Notes under the pieces: model-generated
Databases searched by the model: none
The model's input: only the letters and a program-made list of their open reading frames with translations
Told to the model about the DNA's origin: nothing
Position numbers and translations under genes: made by a program
Assembly (NCBI RefSeq): GCF_002240055.1
Contig: NZ_CP016753.1
Span: 1,116,001 to 1,180,000 of the forward strand
Direction: 5' to 3'
Length of the DNA stretch: 64,000 nucleotides
Source of the DNA: Leptotrichia sp. oral taxon 498
Lineage (GTDB): Bacteria > Fusobacteriota > Fusobacteriia > Fusobacteriales > Leptotrichiaceae
Shown: piece by piece, positions 3,425-32,480 of the stretch
Numbering within the stretch: the stretch's first letter is position 1
Layout: each line of letters starts with the position of its first letter

Positions 3425-4426
3425 TTACAATGCTCCTTCTTTAATTAATGTTTCGGCAATTTGAATTGTATTTGTTGCCGCACCTTTTCTTATGTTGTCT
3501 GCAACTACCCATAAATTTAATCCATTATCAACAGTATCATCTCTTCTTATTCTACCAACATAAACTTCATCAGTATCTTGTGCTGTTATTGGCATTGGAT
3601 AAACTTTGTTTTTACCATCATTTTGAACGATTACACCTTCTTTTTCTTCAAATGCTTTAACTACATCTTCTAATTCAAAAGGTTTTTCCAATTCAACATT
3701 TACAGAAACTCCATGTCCAAATTTAACTGGAATTCTAACACAAGTTGCTGTAACTTTTAAATCTGGTAAACTTAAAATTTTTCTTGTTTCATTTATCATT
3801 TTTTCTTCTTCTTTTGTATATCCATTTTCTAAAAATACATCAATGTGTGGCAATGCATTGAAAGCTATTTGATGAGGGAAATTTGTTGATGGTTTTCCTT
3901 GTAAATTATTTTCTAAATCATCTAATCCTTTTTTTCCAGCTCCTGCAACTGCTTGATAAGTTGAGTAAATTACTCTTTTTAATCTATATTTATCTTGCAA
4001 TACTTTTAAAATTGGCATTACTTGAATTGTTGAACAATTTGGGTTTGCAATAATTCCTCTGTGATTTTTCAATGCTTCTGGATTTGCTTCAGGTACAACT
4101 AAAGGAATGTCTTTATCCATTCTCCAAGCACTACTATTATCCACTACTACAGCACCTTTATCTCTAAATTTAGGTGCGAACTCTTTAGAAATTCCTCCTC
4201 CTGCTGAGAATAAAGCTACATCAATATCTTCTTTAATATTTTCGTCTTTCAATTCGATTACTGTGTATTCTTTTCCTCCCCAATTTACAACTTTTCCAGC
4301 CGATCTAGCCGATGCATAAAGATATAAATTTTCCACTGGGAAATTTCTTTCTTTTAATACTTTTAAAAATGTTTGCCCTACTAATCCTGTTGCTCCAACT
4401 ACTGCTACGTTATATTTTTTACTCAT
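3425..4426 (-). CDS. asd: Aspartate-semialdehyde dehydrogenase
   Basis: Asd reduces aspartyl phosphate to aspartate semialdehyde with NADPH, the branch point to lysine/diaminopimelate, threonine and methionine. The 333-residue product has the N-terminal nucleotide-binding loop GATGLVGQ (11-18), the catalytic Cys131 in NPNCSTIQ, and the RIPVKFGHG segment with the active-site His. It matches the family in length. A strong AGGAGG site precedes the ATG. It is the first gene of an operon with the amino acid ABC transporter. Its native control was probably the lysine riboswitch at 6453-6621, now separated from it by a 1.75 kb IS element; a promoter at 4487-4515 now sits directly upstream. Confidence 0.96.
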   Translation of the reverse strand: MSKKYNVAVVGATGLVGQTFLKVLKERNFPVENLYLYASARSAGKVVNWGGKEYTVIELKDENIKEDIDVALFSAGGGISKEFAPKFRDKGAVVVDNSSAWRMDKDIPLVVPEANPEALKNHRGIIANPNCSTIQVMPILKVLQDKYRLKRVIYSTYQAVAGAGKKGLDDLENNLQGKPSTNFPHQIAFNALPHIDVFLENGYTKEEEKMINETRKILSLPDLKVTATCVRIPVKFGHGVSVNVELEKPFELEDVVKAFEEKEGVIVQNDGKNKVYPMPITAQDTDEVYVGRIRRDDTVDNGLNLWVVADNIRKGAATNTIQIAETLIKEGAL

Positions 4427-5763: not shown

Positions 5764-6162
5764 TTACACCTCCTTTTGATTTTGAATATATTTTTTAATT
5801 ATCTCTAACGGTGCACCTCCAACACTTACAACTAAGTAACTTCTACTCCAAAAATATTCTTCCCACAATCTTCCCCTTATTTCAGGAAATTCTTTTTTTA
5901 TCAACCTGCTGGAAGCACTTTTGTAAGTATTTACAAACTTAGAAAGTTCAGTATTAGGCATAGCATTAATCAACATATGAATGTGATCAACATCATGTTC
6001 CCATTCTTTAAGAACAATGTTATACTTCGGACATATTTTTTCAAAAATCTCTTTCAATCTATTAGAAATTTCATCATTAATTACTTCTCTTCGATACTTT
6101 ATACAAAAAATCATATGATAATTTATATCAAATACTGAATGATAATTGCTATTATATGACAT
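5764..6162 (-). CDS. tnpA: IS200/IS605 transposase TnpA (Y1 HUH)
   Basis: TnpA is the single-strand DNA transposase that cuts and joins element ends through a covalent phosphotyrosine. The 132-residue protein has the HUH metal site H60-I61-H62 in DVDHIHMLI and the nucleophile Y125 in KKYIQNQ. The family length is about 130-155, so it is complete. Its promoter (6199-6227) sits inside the IS left end and tnpB follows by 4 nt. It is the only tnpA in the window and could in principle also mobilise the tnpA-less copy 2. Confidence 0.95.
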   Translation of the reverse strand: MSYNSNYHSVFDINYHMIFCIKYRREVINDEISNRLKEIFEKICPKYNIVLKEWEHDVDHIHMLINAMPNTELSKFVNTYKSASSRLIKKEFPEIRGRLWEEYFWSRSYLVVSVGGAPLEIIKKYIQNQKEV

Positions 6163-6416: not shown

Positions 6417-6452
6417 ATAAAATATATAATCTAAAATAAAATCACATTTATA

Positions 6453-6621
6453 TATCTGACAGCTCACCATTACATGTTATAATGGCAGTTCTATAGATAT
6501 TCTCCATAGACCCAGCAGCAAAGTTCATCACTCTTCCTGCTTCGGCGATTTCCCCTTTCAAATTATTTCATTGAATTGACTTTCTCAATAAATCTACTCT
6601 TAAAAACCGCGCCTCTATCTT
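6453..6621 (-). promoter_or_regulatory. Lysine riboswitch (L box)
   Basis: Read on the minus strand from 6621 to 6453, the segment carries, in the right order, the conserved blocks of the lysine aptamer: AGAGGCGCGG, AGAGTAGATT, GAAAGGGGAAATCGCCGAAG, CTGCTGGG, ACTGCC and GGTGAGCTGTC. A consensus promoter precedes it and a terminator follows it. In other bacteria it turns off lysine synthesis or uptake genes when lysine is high. The next genes downstream on this strand, beyond the IS element, are asd and the amino acid transporter, so these were most likely its original targets. The rest of 6301-6832 shows no gene. Confidence 0.88.
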
Positions 6622-6626
6622 GTAAC

Positions 6627-21069: not shown

Positions 21070-22581
<1,512 letters not shown>

Positions 22582-22619
22582 CTAAGGAGCATGTTTTCCT
22601 GCACTTCTTCTTTTGATTT

Positions 22620-22696
<77 letters not shown>

Positions 22697-22705
22697 TTAC
22701 TTTTT

Positions 22706-22781
22706 GGGGATATAGCTCAGTTGGGAGAGCGCTGCCCTTGCAAGGCAGAGGTCAGCGGTTCGAACCCGCTTATCTCCACCA
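22706..22781 (+). tRNA. tRNA-Ala (TGC)
   Basis: This is a 76-nt cloverleaf 9 nt after tRNA-Ile, with acceptor GGGGATA/TATCTCC (one G.T pair), anticodon TGC and encoded CCA. An Ile-Ala pair in the spacer is common in bacteria. Confidence 0.96.
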
Positions 22782-22850
22782 ATTTTAAGGACAATGGGAA
22801 ATGAATAGTAGGTAAAAGATTACAACAAAATAGATTATTCTGTTTGATAA

Positions 22851-25751
<2,901 letters not shown>

Positions 25752-25801
25752 ATCTTTTGCTTGCCTGCTATTTATTTCCCATTGCCCTTTACATCCATTC
25801 T

Positions 25802-25917
25802 TGTTTGGTGACCATTGCGGCAGGGATACACCCGGTGACATCCCGAACCCGGCAGTTAAGTCTGCTTGCGCCTACGATACTTGGCATGTGCCAGGGAAAA
25901 TGGGCAGTCGCCAAACT
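25802..25917 (+). rRNA. rrf: 5S ribosomal RNA
   Basis: It is about 116 nt long. The closing stem is GTTTGG with CCAAAC and the interior carries the conserved CATCCCGAACCCGG block. It lies 50 bp after 23S in the usual order. Confidence 0.95.
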
Positions 25918-25930
25918 TTTCTTTTTCTGC

Positions 25931-26007
25931 GTCTCCGTAGCTCAGCTGGTTAGAGCATCTGACTGTTAATCAGAGGGCCGCTGGTTCGAGCCCAGCCGGG
26001 GACGCCA
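25931..26007 (+). tRNA. tRNA-Asn (GTT)
   Basis: This is a 77-nt cloverleaf 13 nt after 5S, with acceptor GTCTCCG/CGGGGAC, anticodon GTT, discriminator G and encoded CCA. It is the last gene of the rRNA operon. Confidence 0.95.
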
Positions 26008-29446: not shown

Positions 29447-32400
29447 GTGAAAATATCAGATTTTGATTTTGAATTGCCAAAGGAATTAATTGCACAAAAA
29501 GCAATGGAACCTAGAGACAGTTCCAAACTTTTAGTATTAGATAAAAAAGAAAAAACGCTTGAACACAGACATTTTTTTAATATAATTGATTATTTGAAAA
29601 AAGGTGATGTGCTTGTCATAAATAGGACAAAAGTTATTCCTGCAAGAATTTTTGGACATAAAAAGTTGTATGGAGATGAAATTGGGGCTTTGATGGAATG
29701 TTTTTTATTAAATAGTGCAAGAACACTCGCGACGCAAGGAGTGAGATGAATTGCACGAAAATTTTAGTAAGCATATAGGGAAACTTGTATGTAGACACGG
29801 AGCAAAAACCGTGCAACAAAGAAACTGAACTGCTGGGAACTCTTAAAGCTAGTATAACCACAACATAATACCTAAGTGAGAATATATGGTATAAGTGTGA
29901 TGGTGGCGAAAGCAGAAAAAATATACTAGATGGTGCAAGGTTAAATCCTAAACACTGAGCCATATAGAAAGGTATACAATAGACAATCAGCAGCTAATCC
30001 TGAAAAGGAAAGTTCAACGACTATCCCTCGTGAGGGGAGTACAATACAAGCGATTGGTATTGGAAGTGGTTTCGCCTAAATCTTAGGTAGTAACAAATAT
30101 AATTGTTATGAATATAAGATATGGATAAGATATAGTCTGTGCTTGTTAGAGATAACAAGAAGTTCAAGATATTCTTTTCTCCTTAACTTGTTAAGGAGTG
30201 AAAATATTAGGAGAACTGCATAAGTAGTAGCGCACTTATGTGAACGACGCTTCCCACTGTTGTGGGGTTTTAAAAACTTTAAAAATATTTAAAAATAAAT
30301 AAAAGATATTACTTTTTTGACAGATAAAATGTAGAATGCATGGTATAATATCTCTGATGAAAAGGAGGTGATTATATATGTATTTAACATTAAAACAACA
30401 GGTAAAACATCTTAGCAAAAAGGAGTTTAGGAATTTAAAATATTTATCTCATATAGCCAAGAACTTAACTAATGAAGCTATATATAATATTAGACAGTAT
30501 TATTTTAACAAGAAAAAGTATTTAAGTTATAATGAAAACTATAAAATGCTTAAAAATAGTGAGAACTATAAGAAGTTAAATTCTAATATGGCTCAACAAA
30601 TTCTAAAAGAAGCAGATGGAAGTTTTAAATCATTTTTTGGGCTTTTAAAACTTGCTAAGAATGGTCAATATGATAATAAAAAAATAAAATTACCTAAATA
30701 TCTTGCTAAAGATAGTTTTACAACTCTTGTTATAGGTTTTGTTAGATTAAAAGATGGTATGCTGATAGTTCCTTATTCAAATTCATTTAGAAAGACACAT
30801 AAGGAAATCGCAATAAAACTGCCACCAGTATTAAAAGGCAAGAAGATAAAAGAGATTAGAATAATGCCAAAACAACATTCTAGGTACTTTGAAATTCAAT
30901 ATACTTATGAGGTAGAAGAAGTTCAAAGGGAATTAAATAAAGAAAATGGACTAGGAATAGATTTAGGTATAGATAATCTTTGTACTTGTGTAACTAATAA
31001 TGGAGCATCATTCCTAATAGATGGTAGAAAATTAAAATCTATTAATCAATACTATAACAAGACAAATGCAAAATTGCAAAGCATAAAAGATAAGCAAAAG
31101 ATTAAGCGGACAACATTAAGGCAAAAGAGAATAGCTAGAAGGAGAAATAATCGCATAGAAGATTATCTTTCAAAAGCAGCAAGAATAATTATAAATTATT
31201 GTCTTAATAATGATATAGGAAAAATAGTTCTGGGATATAACGAGAATTTTCAAAGAAATTCAAATATAGGAAGCATAAATAATCAGAACTTTGTAAATAT
31301 ACCATATGGAAAATTAAGAGATAAATTAATATATCTATGTAAACTATATGGAATAGAATTTAAACTGCAAGAAGAAAGTTATACATCAAAAGCAAGTTTC
31401 TTTGATGGAGATGAAATTCCGATATATGATAAAGAAAATCAAAAAGAATATATATTCAGTGGAAAAAGAATAAAAAGAGGACTATATCAAACAAGTAAAG
31501 GCTATCAATTAAATGCAGACTGTAATGGAGCATTAAACATATTAAGAAAAAGTAAAGTTGTGGACTTAAGCGTCCTATACAATAGAGGTGAGCTGAACAC
31601 ACCTAAAAGAATAAGGGTAGTGTAAAGCTATCAAACTTCTTAGAAAATTTTTAAATATTCTTAAAGATTTTAGAACCCTGCGACTTTAGTCGTGGGAGGT
31701 TCAGTAAAAAGATATGATTTGAAAACTTGGGAAGTCTTGCTAAAACCTGCCAAAAAGTTGAAAATAGGACAGAAAATTGTGTTTAGCGAAGGACTACTGG
31801 AAGCTGAATTAATTGAGATTAAAGAAGACGGAAATAGAGTTTTGAAATTTGAATTTGAGGGAAATTTTGAAGAAATATTGGATAAATTGGGAGAGATGCC
31901 GTTACCACCTTATATAACTGAAAAACTTTCAGATAAAAATCGTTATCAGACAGTTTATGCAAAACAAGGAGAATCAGTTGCAGCACCAACTGCAGGGCTT
32001 CATTTTACAATGGAACTGCTTGAAAAAATAAAGAAAAAAGGAGTCATTTTGACAGAAGTATTTTTGGATGTTGGACTTGGGACTTTTAGACCTGTGCAAG
32101 TTGAAGATGTGACAGAGCATAAAATGCACAGTGAAAAATACTGGATTCCTGAAAAAACTGCAAAAATTGTAAACGAAGCTAAAAAAAATGGGAATAGAAT
32201 TATCGCGGTTGGGACAACTTCGGTGAGAACATTGGAATCTTGTGTAGATGAAAATGGTAAACTTCTTCCAAAAAATGGAGCTACAAATATTTTTATCTAT
32301 GGAGACTATAAATTTAAAATTGTCGACGCGATGATTACTAATTTTCATTTGCCAAAATCTACACTTGTTATGCTAGTTTCAGCATTTGCTGGAAAAGATT

Positions 32401-32480
32401 TTGTGTTTTCTGCATATAAGGAGGCGATTAAAGAAAAATACAGATTTTATAGTTTTGGAGATTCAATGTTTATATATTAA
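29447..32480 (+). CDS. queA: S-adenosylmethionine:tRNA ribosyltransferase-isomerase, split by an IStron
   Basis: QueA makes epoxyqueuosine in tRNA anticodons. Exon 1 is 29447-29708 (GTG start, AAGGAG 6 nt upstream; residues 1-87 include [13 protein letters not shown] and [14 protein letters not shown]). Exon 2 is 31705-32480 ([51 protein letters not shown]). Removing 29709-31704 joins TTTTTTAT to TAAAAAG, completes a Leu codon and gives ECFLLKRYDL in frame. The result is 1038 nt or 345 residues, the normal family length. Without splicing the protein stops at 29749. The gene is therefore probably functional only through RNA splicing. Confidence 0.93.
29709..30260 (+). ncRNA. Group I self-splicing intron core
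   Basis: P1: exon TTTAT (29704-29708) pairs with the guide GTAAG (29767-29771), giving the required U.G pair at U29708.G29767. The pairing continues into the intron (TAAA with TTTA, GTGCAA with TTGCAC). P4: CTGCTG (29830-29835) with CAGCAG (29988-29993), inside a Q element AATCAGCAGC. P7: GACTA (30019-30023, in R element GTTCAACGACTAT) with TAGTC (30133-30137, in S element AAGATATAGTCT). A hairpin CATAAGT/ACTTATG near 30215-30240 fits P9. P, Q, R and S occur in the right order. The 3' splice site is the G at 31704. No homing endonuclease or reverse transcriptase is encoded. Confidence 0.9.
30378..31625 (+). CDS. tnpB: TnpB nuclease of the IStron (IS605 OrfB, lacking the usual zinc knuckle)
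   Basis: This 415-residue TnpB is of a different lineage from the two other copies here. RuvC Asp195 ([13 protein letters not shown]) and Asp381 ([11 protein letters not shown]) are present. The middle motif reads [11 protein letters not shown], so the catalytic Glu (E289 or the E333 region in EESYTSK) is not certain. The CxxC zinc pairs of typical TnpBs are absent: SYTSKAS is followed by GKRIKRGLY, as in a known OrfB subgroup. AAAGGAGG precedes the ATG. It is inside the intron, so the mRNA and the guide scaffold compete with splicing. A terminator-like CCCAC/GTGGG hairpin lies upstream at about 30253-30270. Confidence 0.93.
   Translation: MYLTLKQQVKHLSKKEFRNLKYLSHIAKNLTNEAIYNIRQYYFNKKKYLSYNENYKMLKNSENYKKLNSNMAQQILKEADGSFKSFFGLLKLAKNGQYDNKKIKLPKYLAKDSFTTLVIGFVRLKDGMLIVPYSNSFRKTHKEIAIKLPPVLKGKKIKEIRIMPKQHSRYFEIQYTYEVEEVQRELNKENGLGIDLGIDNLCTCVTNNGASFLIDGRKLKSINQYYNKTNAKLQSIKDKQKIKRTTLRQKRIARRRNNRIEDYLSKAARIIINYCLNNDIGKIVLGYNENFQRNSNIGSINNQNFVNIPYGKLRDKLIYLCKLYGIEFKLQEESYTSKASFFDGDEIPIYDKENQKEYIFSGKRIKRGLYQTSKGYQLNADCNGALNILRKSKVVDLSVLYNRGELNTPKRIRVV
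31626..31704 (+). ncRNA. Right end and putative omega RNA 3' part of the IStron
   Basis: A nested hairpin is formed by GAACC (31673-31677) with GGTTC (31698-31702), and CGAC (31681-31684) with GTCG (31689-31692). It ends two bases before the 3' splice site. By analogy with TnpB systems this is the guide scaffold. The guide would be the start of queA exon 2 (TAAAAAGATATG...), i.e. the empty queA site, with TTTAT as the adjacent motif. Confidence 0.6.

What the first reader, a model, noticed from the sequence alone, without database searches (positions are those of the whole stretch)
29709..31704. An IStron sits inside queA, and precise group I splicing would restore QueA
A 1996-bp insertion splits the tRNA modification gene queA. 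It joins a group I intron (P, Q, R and S elements in order, P4 and P7 pairings, internal guide GTAAG) to a tnpB gene and an IS605-type right end. The U.G pair marking the 5' splice site falls exactly at U29708, and the terminal G at 31704. Joining these ends gives a seamless 345-residue QueA. So a transposon that disrupts a gene in DNA would be silent in RNA. IStrons are known (CdISt1 of Clostridioides difficile and clostridial relatives). One placed in a housekeeping gene of a Fusobacterium, with a TnpB lacking the usual zinc knuckle and no tnpA, looks little described.
Basis: partly seen in the sequence, partly recalled or inferred. Interest (0 to 1): 0.92.

Follow-up and report, generated by a model that had tools for sequence, protein, structure and literature searches.

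The report
Self-splicing transposon inside tRNA-modification gene queA
A jumping gene that carries its own self-removing RNA (an IStron) has landed in a tRNA-modification gene; the kind is known, but in several relatives of this bacterium it is common, sits in genes only in the reading direction, and in one of them splits the only copy of a DNA-replication gene, which strongly suggests that the self-removal works.

Summary
A 1996-bp element (29709-31704) splits queA; joining 29708 to 31705 gives a 345-residue QueA, and the relative G011 carries the same site empty. The element is a group A IStron: a group I intron whose core is backed by covariation across 62 introns, a 415-residue TnpB, insertion after TTTAT, 3' end TTCAG. 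IStrons in Fusobacterium and Leptotrichia are already in print (PMC1924603, PMC4227781), so the kind is not new. Less described: this TnpB has no zinc finger and its catalytic glutamate seems moved.

The comparative evidence for splicing is strong. Of 52 copies with both ends, from 8 genomes, 46 lie in ORFs of 100 aa or more, all sense, none antisense (matched-control P about 1e-5). In G016 the only dnaB is split inside Walker B. queA is split in 4 of 13 genomes of the genus, at three sites. Split queA shows dN/dS 0.06. There are no RNA data, and this copy sits in the reading phase rarest among the insertions.

The parts
29447..29708 (+). queA exon 1 (262 nt, GTG start), ends UUUAU|
   Evidence: Pfam Queuosine_synth profile positions 1-82; empty site in G011
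29709..31704 (+). IStron, 1996 bp: group I intron + tnpB + IS200/IS605-type right end
   Evidence: ends shared by 52 copies; empty site
29704..29708 (+). TTTAT target / TAM-like pentamer; 5' strand of P1
   Evidence: 51 of 52 copies follow TTTAT
29767..29771 (+). internal guide sequence GUAAG; pairs with UUUAU, U.G at the 5' splice site
   Evidence: helix 1, 91.3% of cells paired, no double changes, so the pairing rests on conservation, not covariation
29715..29756 (+). outer part of P1 (29715-29720 with 29751-29756) and the left-end hairpin inside it; also the IS left-end palindrome
   Evidence: 86.5% and 60.0% of cells paired
29821..30073 (+). P3 pseudoknot helix: 29821-29825 with 30069-30073
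   Evidence: 100% of cells paired, 4 of 5 pairs with double changes
29830..29993 (+). P4: 29830-29835 with 29988-29993; P5 29849-29855 with 29923-29929 lies inside
30019..30137 (+). P7 (G-binding site helix): 30019-30024 with 30132-30137; P7.1, P7.2 and P8 between
   Evidence: P7 invariant but for one G-U cell; P7.2 (3 pairs) and P8 (5 pairs) with double changes; P8 78.4% of cells paired
30142..30240 (+). P9, P9.1, P9.2
   Evidence: 97-100% of cells paired
30265..30296 (+). 5' arm of the inverted repeat that encloses the ORF region (3' arm 31647-31678)
   Evidence: 90.6% match of the reverse complement over 32 nt
30378..31622 (+). tnpB, 415 aa, RuvC-fold protein; D195, E333 (alternative position), D381; no zinc finger
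   Evidence: Pfam PF01385, PF07282; model aligns to ISDra2 TnpB 8exa, Z 20.6, rmsd 5.5, 321 aligned; median dN/dS 0.166 among 34 copies
31520..31704 (+). right end: candidate guide-RNA (omega RNA) scaffold and right-end hairpin; 3' splice site after G31704
   Evidence: fold z -3.0, 2 of 200 shuffles as stable; post-ORF region 97% conserved among 34 copies
31705..31724 (+). first 20 nt of exon 2 = predicted guide segment of TnpB, matching the empty queA allele beside TTTAT
   Evidence: inference from TnpB biology; sequence
31705..32480 (+). queA exon 2 (776 nt)
   Evidence: Pfam Queuosine_synth profile positions 85-322

Best explanation
The insertion is a group A IStron, one of three copies in this genome and of dozens in related genomes. 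At the RNA level its 5' part folds into a group I ribozyme (subclass IA2 by its extra P7 and P9 helices) that cuts after U29708 and joins it to 31705, restoring a 345-codon queA message (shown: anatomy, empty site, covariation; inferred: the reaction itself). At the DNA level it is an IS200/IS605-type passenger without its own tnpA, inserted after TTTAT and probably moved in trans by a Y1 transposase. Its TnpB, with a right-end guide RNA that reads into exon 2, probably cuts empty TTTAT-flanked alleles and so keeps or copies the element (inferred from known TnpB biology). Because insertions splice out, sense insertions in genes survive, and even dnaB can carry one.
For: Exact empty site and 345-residue QueA. 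Structure: 46 of 106 pairs with double changes, P3 pseudoknot fully compensated between two intron families. 46 of 52 copies with both ends are in ORFs >=100 aa, 46 sense and 0 antisense (the longer of the two ORFs decides); TTTAT sites on the same strand in the flanks, host gene excluded, are 900 sense, 260 antisense, 523 neither, giving P 8.5e-6 for 46 of 46 and 2.3e-5 for the 42 independent sites. The sole DnaB of G016 is split in Walker B (name recalled); the joined 478 residues align end to end with intact DnaBs of three relatives. Other hosts, named from Pfam domains of single exon pieces, include SmpB, RuvB, UvrB, Mfd, RecG and MutL. queA dN/dS G000-G011 is 0.059 over 336 codons; on the G000 branch 25 synonymous and 9 nonsynonymous changes over 207 and 801 sites. 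tgt and queH are present. Reading phase favours the two phases that meet UAA or UAG within two codons of the element start (41 of 46, P 0.0003), as expected if translation must stay out of the ribozyme. TnpB is under purifying selection. CdISt1 variants splice in all cases tested, and in vivo splicing of BcISt1 is reported, in PMC4227781 (section 20 part 1; passage of section 18).
Against: No RNA evidence. This copy is in reading phase 1, the rarest (5 of 46), where translation would run 13 codons into P1. It carries a 25-nt P8-loop extension shared by only three other copies. 6 of 52 copies are not in an ORF >=100 aa, and two copies also have an antisense ORF >=100 aa, shorter than the sense one. 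The dN/dS averages over a branch on which the insertion may be recent. The sense bias is partly due to local co-orientation of genes (78% of coding TTTAT sites on that strand are sense). The DnaB copy has one P4 mismatch. The glutamate of TnpB is not in the canonical place, so nuclease activity is uncertain. Among the four TnpA loci of G000 none showed ends like those of the IStron.
Confidence: 0.87

Rival explanations
1. The element is an ordinary disrupting insertion: the intron in this copy does not splice usefully and queA is dead in this strain.
For: queA is usually dispensable (recalled); 4 of 13 genomes of the genus have it split, as a tolerated gene might; the copy lies in the disfavoured reading phase; no RNA data.
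Against: No other stop or frameshift in either exon; dN/dS 0.06; the family is sense-only in genes and splits a single-copy dnaB; apart from a loop extension and a two-base insertion, no departure from the conserved ribozyme columns.
Confidence: 0.12
2. The gene is restored in DNA, not RNA: IS200/IS605 transposases excise without a scar, and a fraction of cells carry intact genes.
For: The ends are scarless, no target duplication; Y1 transposases exist in 8 of 8 genomes searched.
Against: The assemblies show the occupied allele; it would not explain covariation in the ribozyme, sense-only orientation or a split dnaB; the four TnpA loci of G000 did not show matching ends.
Confidence: 0.04
3. 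The sense bias reflects insertion mechanics (TTTAT on the lagging-strand template plus co-oriented genes) rather than splicing.
For: IS605-type insertion prefers the lagging-strand template (recalled); in G016 the copies are + below position 1.0 Mb and - above 1.6 Mb; local genes are 78% co-oriented.
Against: The matched control already contains this effect and still gives P about 1e-5; two G013 copies oriented against the trend (L127, L129) are nevertheless sense in their genes; it cannot explain survival with split dnaB.
Confidence: 0.05
4. The two queA halves are translated separately (the 3' half from GTG at 31692) and work as a split enzyme.
For: An ORF 31692-32480 with a GTG start five codons before the junction exists.
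Against: No sign of a dedicated start; the 5' half has a 13-codon tail; does not explain the family-wide pattern; the 3' exon frame of dnaB has no start codon within the element.
Confidence: 0.02

Closest known systems
LbISt1 of Leptotrichia buccalis and FnISt1 of Fusobacterium nucleatum (group A IStrons)
   Same: Group IA2 intron, IS200/IS605 tnpB, truncated or missing ORF A, end TCAG, scarless insertion, same phylum.
   Different: FnISt1 inserts after TTGAT (PMC1924603, PMC4227781). Its TnpB-like frame keeps an IENL motif, which I recall as typical of the canonical glutamate, and G005 has no match to the window TnpB at E<=1e-20. The introns of the two families are 64-72% identical.
CdISt1 of Clostridioides difficile and BcISt1 of Bacillus cereus
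   Same: Ribozyme plus IS; splicing reported in PMC4227781.
   Different: CdISt1 targets TTGAT and some copies keep ORF A; BcISt1 is group B, IS607-type, GG target, CGG end.
TnpB / omega-RNA nucleases (ISDra2 TnpB, 8exa, 8h1j) and Cas12f
   Same: Fold (8exa Z 20.6, rmsd 5.5, 321 aligned; Cas12f 8dzj Z 23.1, rmsd 5.5, 348 aligned), RuvC D195 and D381, conserved structured right end.
   Different: No CCCC zinc finger, which ISDra2 TnpB has (PMC10097598, passages); Gly286 where the canonical Glu would end strand 4; Glu333 at the alternative position.
TnpBs and Fanzors with alternative catalytic glutamate (Ealt), PMC10711439 (passages)
   Same: Glu six residues before the position of the first zinc ligand (E333, S340), the spacing given there.
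   Different: DLG, not DPG, in RuvC1; zinc ligands absent; bacterial, inside a group I intron.

Membership tests
IStron, group A (features from PMC4227781) | Group I intron core with P3-P8, plus P7.1/P7.2 and P9.1/P9.2 of subclass IA2 | tested here: met
   18 helices counted, (P9.0 and P10 were not part of the structure)
IStron, group A (features from PMC4227781) | Inserted downstream of TTGAT, ATTAT or TTTAT | tested here: met
   51 of 52 copies follow TTTAT
IStron, group A (features from PMC4227781) | 3' end TCAG | tested here: met
   52 of 52; confirmed for this copy by the empty site
IStron, group A (features from PMC4227781) | No target site duplication; precise empty site | tested here: met
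   G011 queA
IStron, group A (features from PMC4227781) | IS component after P9.2 and a GAACGA-type motif, ORF flanked by an inverted repeat | tested here: met
   GAACGA at 30242-30247; inverted repeat 30265-30296 / 31647-31678
IStron, group A (features from PMC4227781) | IS200/IS605 ORF B (tnpB) | tested here: met
   PF01385 and PF07282, fold
IStron, group A (features from PMC4227781) | Self-splicing that restores the host message | not testable with these tools
   Needs RNA; supported indirectly
TnpB RNA-guided nuclease | RuvC D-E-D triad | tested here: inconclusive
   D195 and D381 invariant, canonical Glu replaced by Gly286, E333 invariant at the Ealt position in 27 of 27 aligned; geometry not measured
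TnpB RNA-guided nuclease | CXXC...CXXC zinc finger (in many, not all, TnpBs per PMC10711439) | tested here: not met
   No CxxC pair; the Pfam TNB domain still matches
TnpB RNA-guided nuclease | Structured guide RNA at the right end | tested here: inconclusive
   Fold z -3.0, 97% conserved after the ORF; no RNA evidence
Rfam RF00028 Intron_gpI | Score at or above the gathering cut-off | tested here: not met
   No hit at E<=1; the related IStron L111 and the introns in L119, L223 and L104 are missed too, so the model does not reach this group

The most novel reading that the evidence does not exclude
In some members of this genus IStrons are so numerous (at least 19 copies in G013, 13 in G016) that a gene as basic as the replicative helicase dnaB depends on ribozyme splicing of a transposon. 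The elements form a clade whose TnpB has lost its zinc finger and moved its catalytic glutamate. They recur at identical sites in orthologous genes of different species; for queA (G010, G013) and a DUF956 gene (G015, G002) the elements are 95% and 92% identical while the host genes are 79% and 77%, which does not fit simple inheritance. That is what RNA-guided homing by TnpB, with transposition in trans by an intron-less IS605 with a matching left end, would produce.
Probability: 0.4. Interest if true: 0.72.

Novelty: new member of a known kind. Interest (0 to 1): 0.52.

Why it matters
It gives a natural experiment on whether a self-splicing transposon is really silent: dozens of insertions, sense-only in genes, one in a gene a cell should not be able to lose, plus reading-phase rules that tie translation to splicing. 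It also offers a TnpB with an apparently altered active site and no zinc finger inside a system where splicing and guide RNA must compete for the same 3' end.

Tried and rejected
Rfam at gathering and at E<=1 gave no group I hit; the yardstick L111 is missed as well, so nothing was concluded from it.

P10 pairing of the 3' exon: the queA site scores 5 of 5, but the 52 sites average 2.6 against 2.6 for 1956 TTTAT sites in the flanks, so P10 is not a selected feature.

PDB sequence search with the TnpB alone gave nothing, and with a 12-row profile only three weak FtsX hits; the fold search succeeded.

I considered that the window TnpB might be a dead repressor because the canonical Glu is missing; the invariant E333 and dN/dS 0.17 argue against it, without proof.

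Guanylate kinase as evidence: in G013 the only copy follows an IStron that splits its start codon as AT|G. I do not lean on it, because all of the coding part but two bases lies downstream and its frame stays open 28 codons into the element, with one TTG.

Shared sites: besides the queA and DUF956 pairs, L094/L108/L117 share a site in a glucosamine-6-phosphate isomerase-like gene; there elements (93.6-94.0%) and hosts (91.3-97.4%) are about equally diverged, so inheritance is possible. The partners are nearest relatives for queA only (ranks 1 and 2; 43 and 46 for DUF956). Gene conversion between copies is not excluded, and the expected number of chance coincidences was not computed in a call.

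The counts rest on a subset: searches scored at most 18 candidates per genome, and one search lists further tnpB copies in G013 that I did not fetch. 'Copy' means an intron match of 500 nt or more from base 1 plus a right end; one of the 52 (L130) is internally deleted to 1172 bp, and 46 of 52 have a tnpB frame of 414 codons or more. Dropped before the count: L092 at 8565 (no right end found), L125 (intron deletion), the L114 copy at 3777 (match starts at 38), fragments L144-L147, and ten TTGAT-type introns. L142 (queA of G013) was added because I was looking at queA; without it the count is 45 of 45 sense. The phase and +1-base tests were not corrected for shared sites. Pfam was run on pieces of 40 of the 46 host genes (one per shared site; the window's queA); 33 of 40 hit a family. 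Intron-less IS elements were not tested as an orientation control, and right ends of the IS605 helpers were not located.
Full report
What was checked. The window is G000:C1:1116001-1180000 of a 2.15-Mb single-contig genome. By inference it is a Leptotrichia: G005, in the same genus, has 2,465,610 bases, the size I recall for L. buccalis, and carries a TTGAT IStron of about the length printed for LbISt1. queA is interrupted at 29708/31705. Both parts match PF02547, the joined frame is 345 codons, and the intact gene of G011 has the same DNA across the junction. The element runs 29709-31704, with ends shared by 52 copies in eight genomes: TTTAT before 51 of 52, TTCAG at the end of 52 of 52. Three of the 52 are in this genome.

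Ribozyme. I aligned these 52 introns with ten from a second, TTGAT-type family, 64-72% identical to the window copy. A structure written from the window copy was counted on all 62: 93.8% of cells paired, 46 of 106 pairs with changes on both sides, 0 of 500 shuffles as good, slid controls 34-42% paired. The P3 pseudoknot is GAAAC/GUUUC in 52 and CUGCU or CUACU with GGCAG or GGUAG in ten, all paired. P7 is invariant but for one G-U cell. P1 places U29708 opposite G29767. The weak parts are the left-end hairpin (60% of cells) and P8 (78%), where copies differ in loop size. Against columns conserved in 90% of rows, the window copy departs only by a 25-nt P8-loop extension, shared with three other copies, and a two-base insertion.

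Does it splice? There are no RNA data, so I looked for what selection shows. (1) 46 of 52 copies lie in ORFs of at least 100 aa once the flanks are joined, and all 46 are sense. In the window, TTTAT sites on both strands are 189 sense, 307 antisense, 219 neither. The stricter control, TTTAT on the element strand in the flanks with the host gene left out, is 900, 260, 523; P is 8.5e-6 for 46 copies and 2.3e-5 for 42 independent sites. (2) Host genes, searched by single exon pieces (40 of 46, plus the window's queA), include by their Pfam domains Mfd, RecG, MutL, UvrB, RuvB, SmpB, methylenetetrahydrofolate reductase and DnaB. G016 has one DnaB, split by a copy; a third, weak DnaB_C match there (32.6 bits, 457-aa frame) has a counterpart in each of the other three genomes searched, beside their intact DnaB, and I take it for a RadA-like protein. 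Joined, the split DnaB is 478 residues, without stops, and aligns end to end at 57-60% identity with intact DnaBs of three relatives; the junction lies in DFMLIDYLQLI, the Walker B segment (motif name recalled). DnaB is essential in the bacteria where this was tested (recalled). (3) queA exons show dN/dS 0.059 against G011 over 336 codons; polarised by G013 the G000 branch has 25 synonymous and 9 nonsynonymous changes. The age of the insertion on that branch is unknown. (4) Reading phases of intragenic copies are 12, 5 and 29 for phases 0, 1 and 2, against 429, 251 and 366 control sites, P 0.0003. In phases 0 and 2 the ribosome stops at UAA or UAG within two codons of the element start; in phase 1 it reads 13 codons. 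PMC4227781 (section 20, part 1) proposed such a rule from in-frame insertions. The queA copy is in phase 1, which is a result against easy splicing here.

queA as a repeated target. queA is split in 4 of 13 genomes of the genus (G000, G010, G013, G016) and has one uninterrupted frame in the other nine. The sites are three: codon 88 here, codon 280 in G016, and one shared site near the 3' end in G010 and G013. tgt and queH are present in all four.

The IS part. The 415-residue TnpB matches PF01385 and PF07282. A model from 27 relatives (mean pLDDT 79.5) aligns to ISDra2 TnpB 8exa with Z 20.6, rmsd 5.5, 321 aligned, and to Cas12f 8dzj with Z 23.1, rmsd 5.5, 348 aligned. It has no CxxC pair. D195 and D381 are invariant in 27 of 27; the residue at the end of the RuvC-II strand is Gly286, invariant, and E333 is invariant. 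ISDra2 TnpB uses D191, E278 and D361 and has a CCCC zinc finger (PMC10097598, passages). PMC10711439 (passages) defines an alternative glutamate six residues upstream of the zinc-finger motif; E333 to S340 fits that spacing. TnpB evolves under purifying selection (median dN/dS 0.166 over 561 pairs of 34 copies). The 3' region is conserved and folds better than shuffles (z -3.0). By analogy with TnpB biology its guide would be the first bases of exon 2, which target the empty allele next to TTTAT but not the filled one; splicing would cut the guide off, a conflict described in Zedaveinyte et al. 2024 (recalled; the paper is not held, and was seen only as a reference entry).

Mobility. The window element carries no tnpA. 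G000 has four Y1 transposases, one at window 5776-6138 on the minus strand, and the DNA within 1.5 kb of them showed no match to the IStron ends. G013 and G002 hold intron-less IS605 elements (tnpA, then tnpB) after TTTAT with left ends 85% and 78% identical to that of the IStron over 52 and 51 nt; their right ends were not located. PMC4227781 (section 20, part 1) thought mobilisation in trans unlikely because no IStron with intact ORF A was present; an intron-less helper is not considered in the part I read.

Distribution. Relatives of this TnpB at E<=1e-20 occur in 11 of 98 genomes of the phylum, in 7 of 13 of the genus. A related IStron, with TTTAT and TTTCAG ends and a TnpB 66% identical, lies in an IMG/VR contig (L223). 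Of 23 TnpB relatives found, only this one had the ribozyme motifs upstream (L086, L216 and L223 had less than 3 kb upstream to look at, and the motif test is a simple pattern).

What is known. IStrons were reported from F. nucleatum in 2007 (PMC1924603, passages) and surveyed in 2014 (PMC4227781: abstract, sections 14, 15, 16, part 1 of 20, passages). That survey lists FnISt1, FnISt2 and LbISt1, all group A with truncated ORF A, TTTAT among the targets, 58% of insertions intragenic. The terms orientation, antisense and sense strand do not occur in its main text, nor does queA. A search of the held library for IStron with queA or dnaB found one paper with IStron and dnaB, PMC4853749, where dnaB carries an intein, not an IStron (passages). 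The listings show no title on this TnpB lineage; the library lacks most subscription journals, so this is weak evidence of absence.

Verdict. A new member of a known kind, in an unusually informative genus. Changes after re-reading the calls: guanylate kinase is no longer used as support, and the trio of shared sites is left out of the homing argument; the odds were kept because the dnaB and orientation results carry them.

Noticed in passing
L092 1594-2968, L109 2319-3689, L114 2083-3565 (G015, G010, G016): One gene, cobalamin-biosynthesis reductase-like by eye, holds two TTGAT-type introns without long ORF about 0.9-1 kb apart in three genomes; in G016 a TTTAT IStron follows directly.
   Followed up: partly
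G000:C1:1317920 (L008, L145): A minimal element of about 45 bp: TTTAT followed by the left-end hairpin fused directly to the right-end hairpin, ending TTCAG; it resembles the palindrome-type decay products of IS200/IS605 mentioned in PMC4853749.
   Followed up: no
52 insertion sites: The first base after the target is A 23, G 13, T 10, C 0 in intragenic copies, against T 422, A 260, G 217, C 147 in coding control sites, P 3e-5; unexplained.
   Followed up: partly
window 5776-6138, minus strand: A Y1 (IS200-type) TnpA gene, one of four near-identical copies in the genome.
   Followed up: partly
L223 (IMG/VR contig 3300012991_000413): An IStron of the same TTTAT kind in a viral-collection contig, near tRNA genes.
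   Followed up: partly
L090/L102, L107/L142 and L094/L108/L117: Identical insertion sites in orthologous genes of different species.
   Followed up: partly
L131 (G013): The only guanylate kinase gene follows an IStron that splits its start codon as AT|G.
   Followed up: partly
window 6452-6625, minus strand; 21070-26004: A lysine riboswitch and a complete rRNA operon with tRNAs.
   Followed up: no
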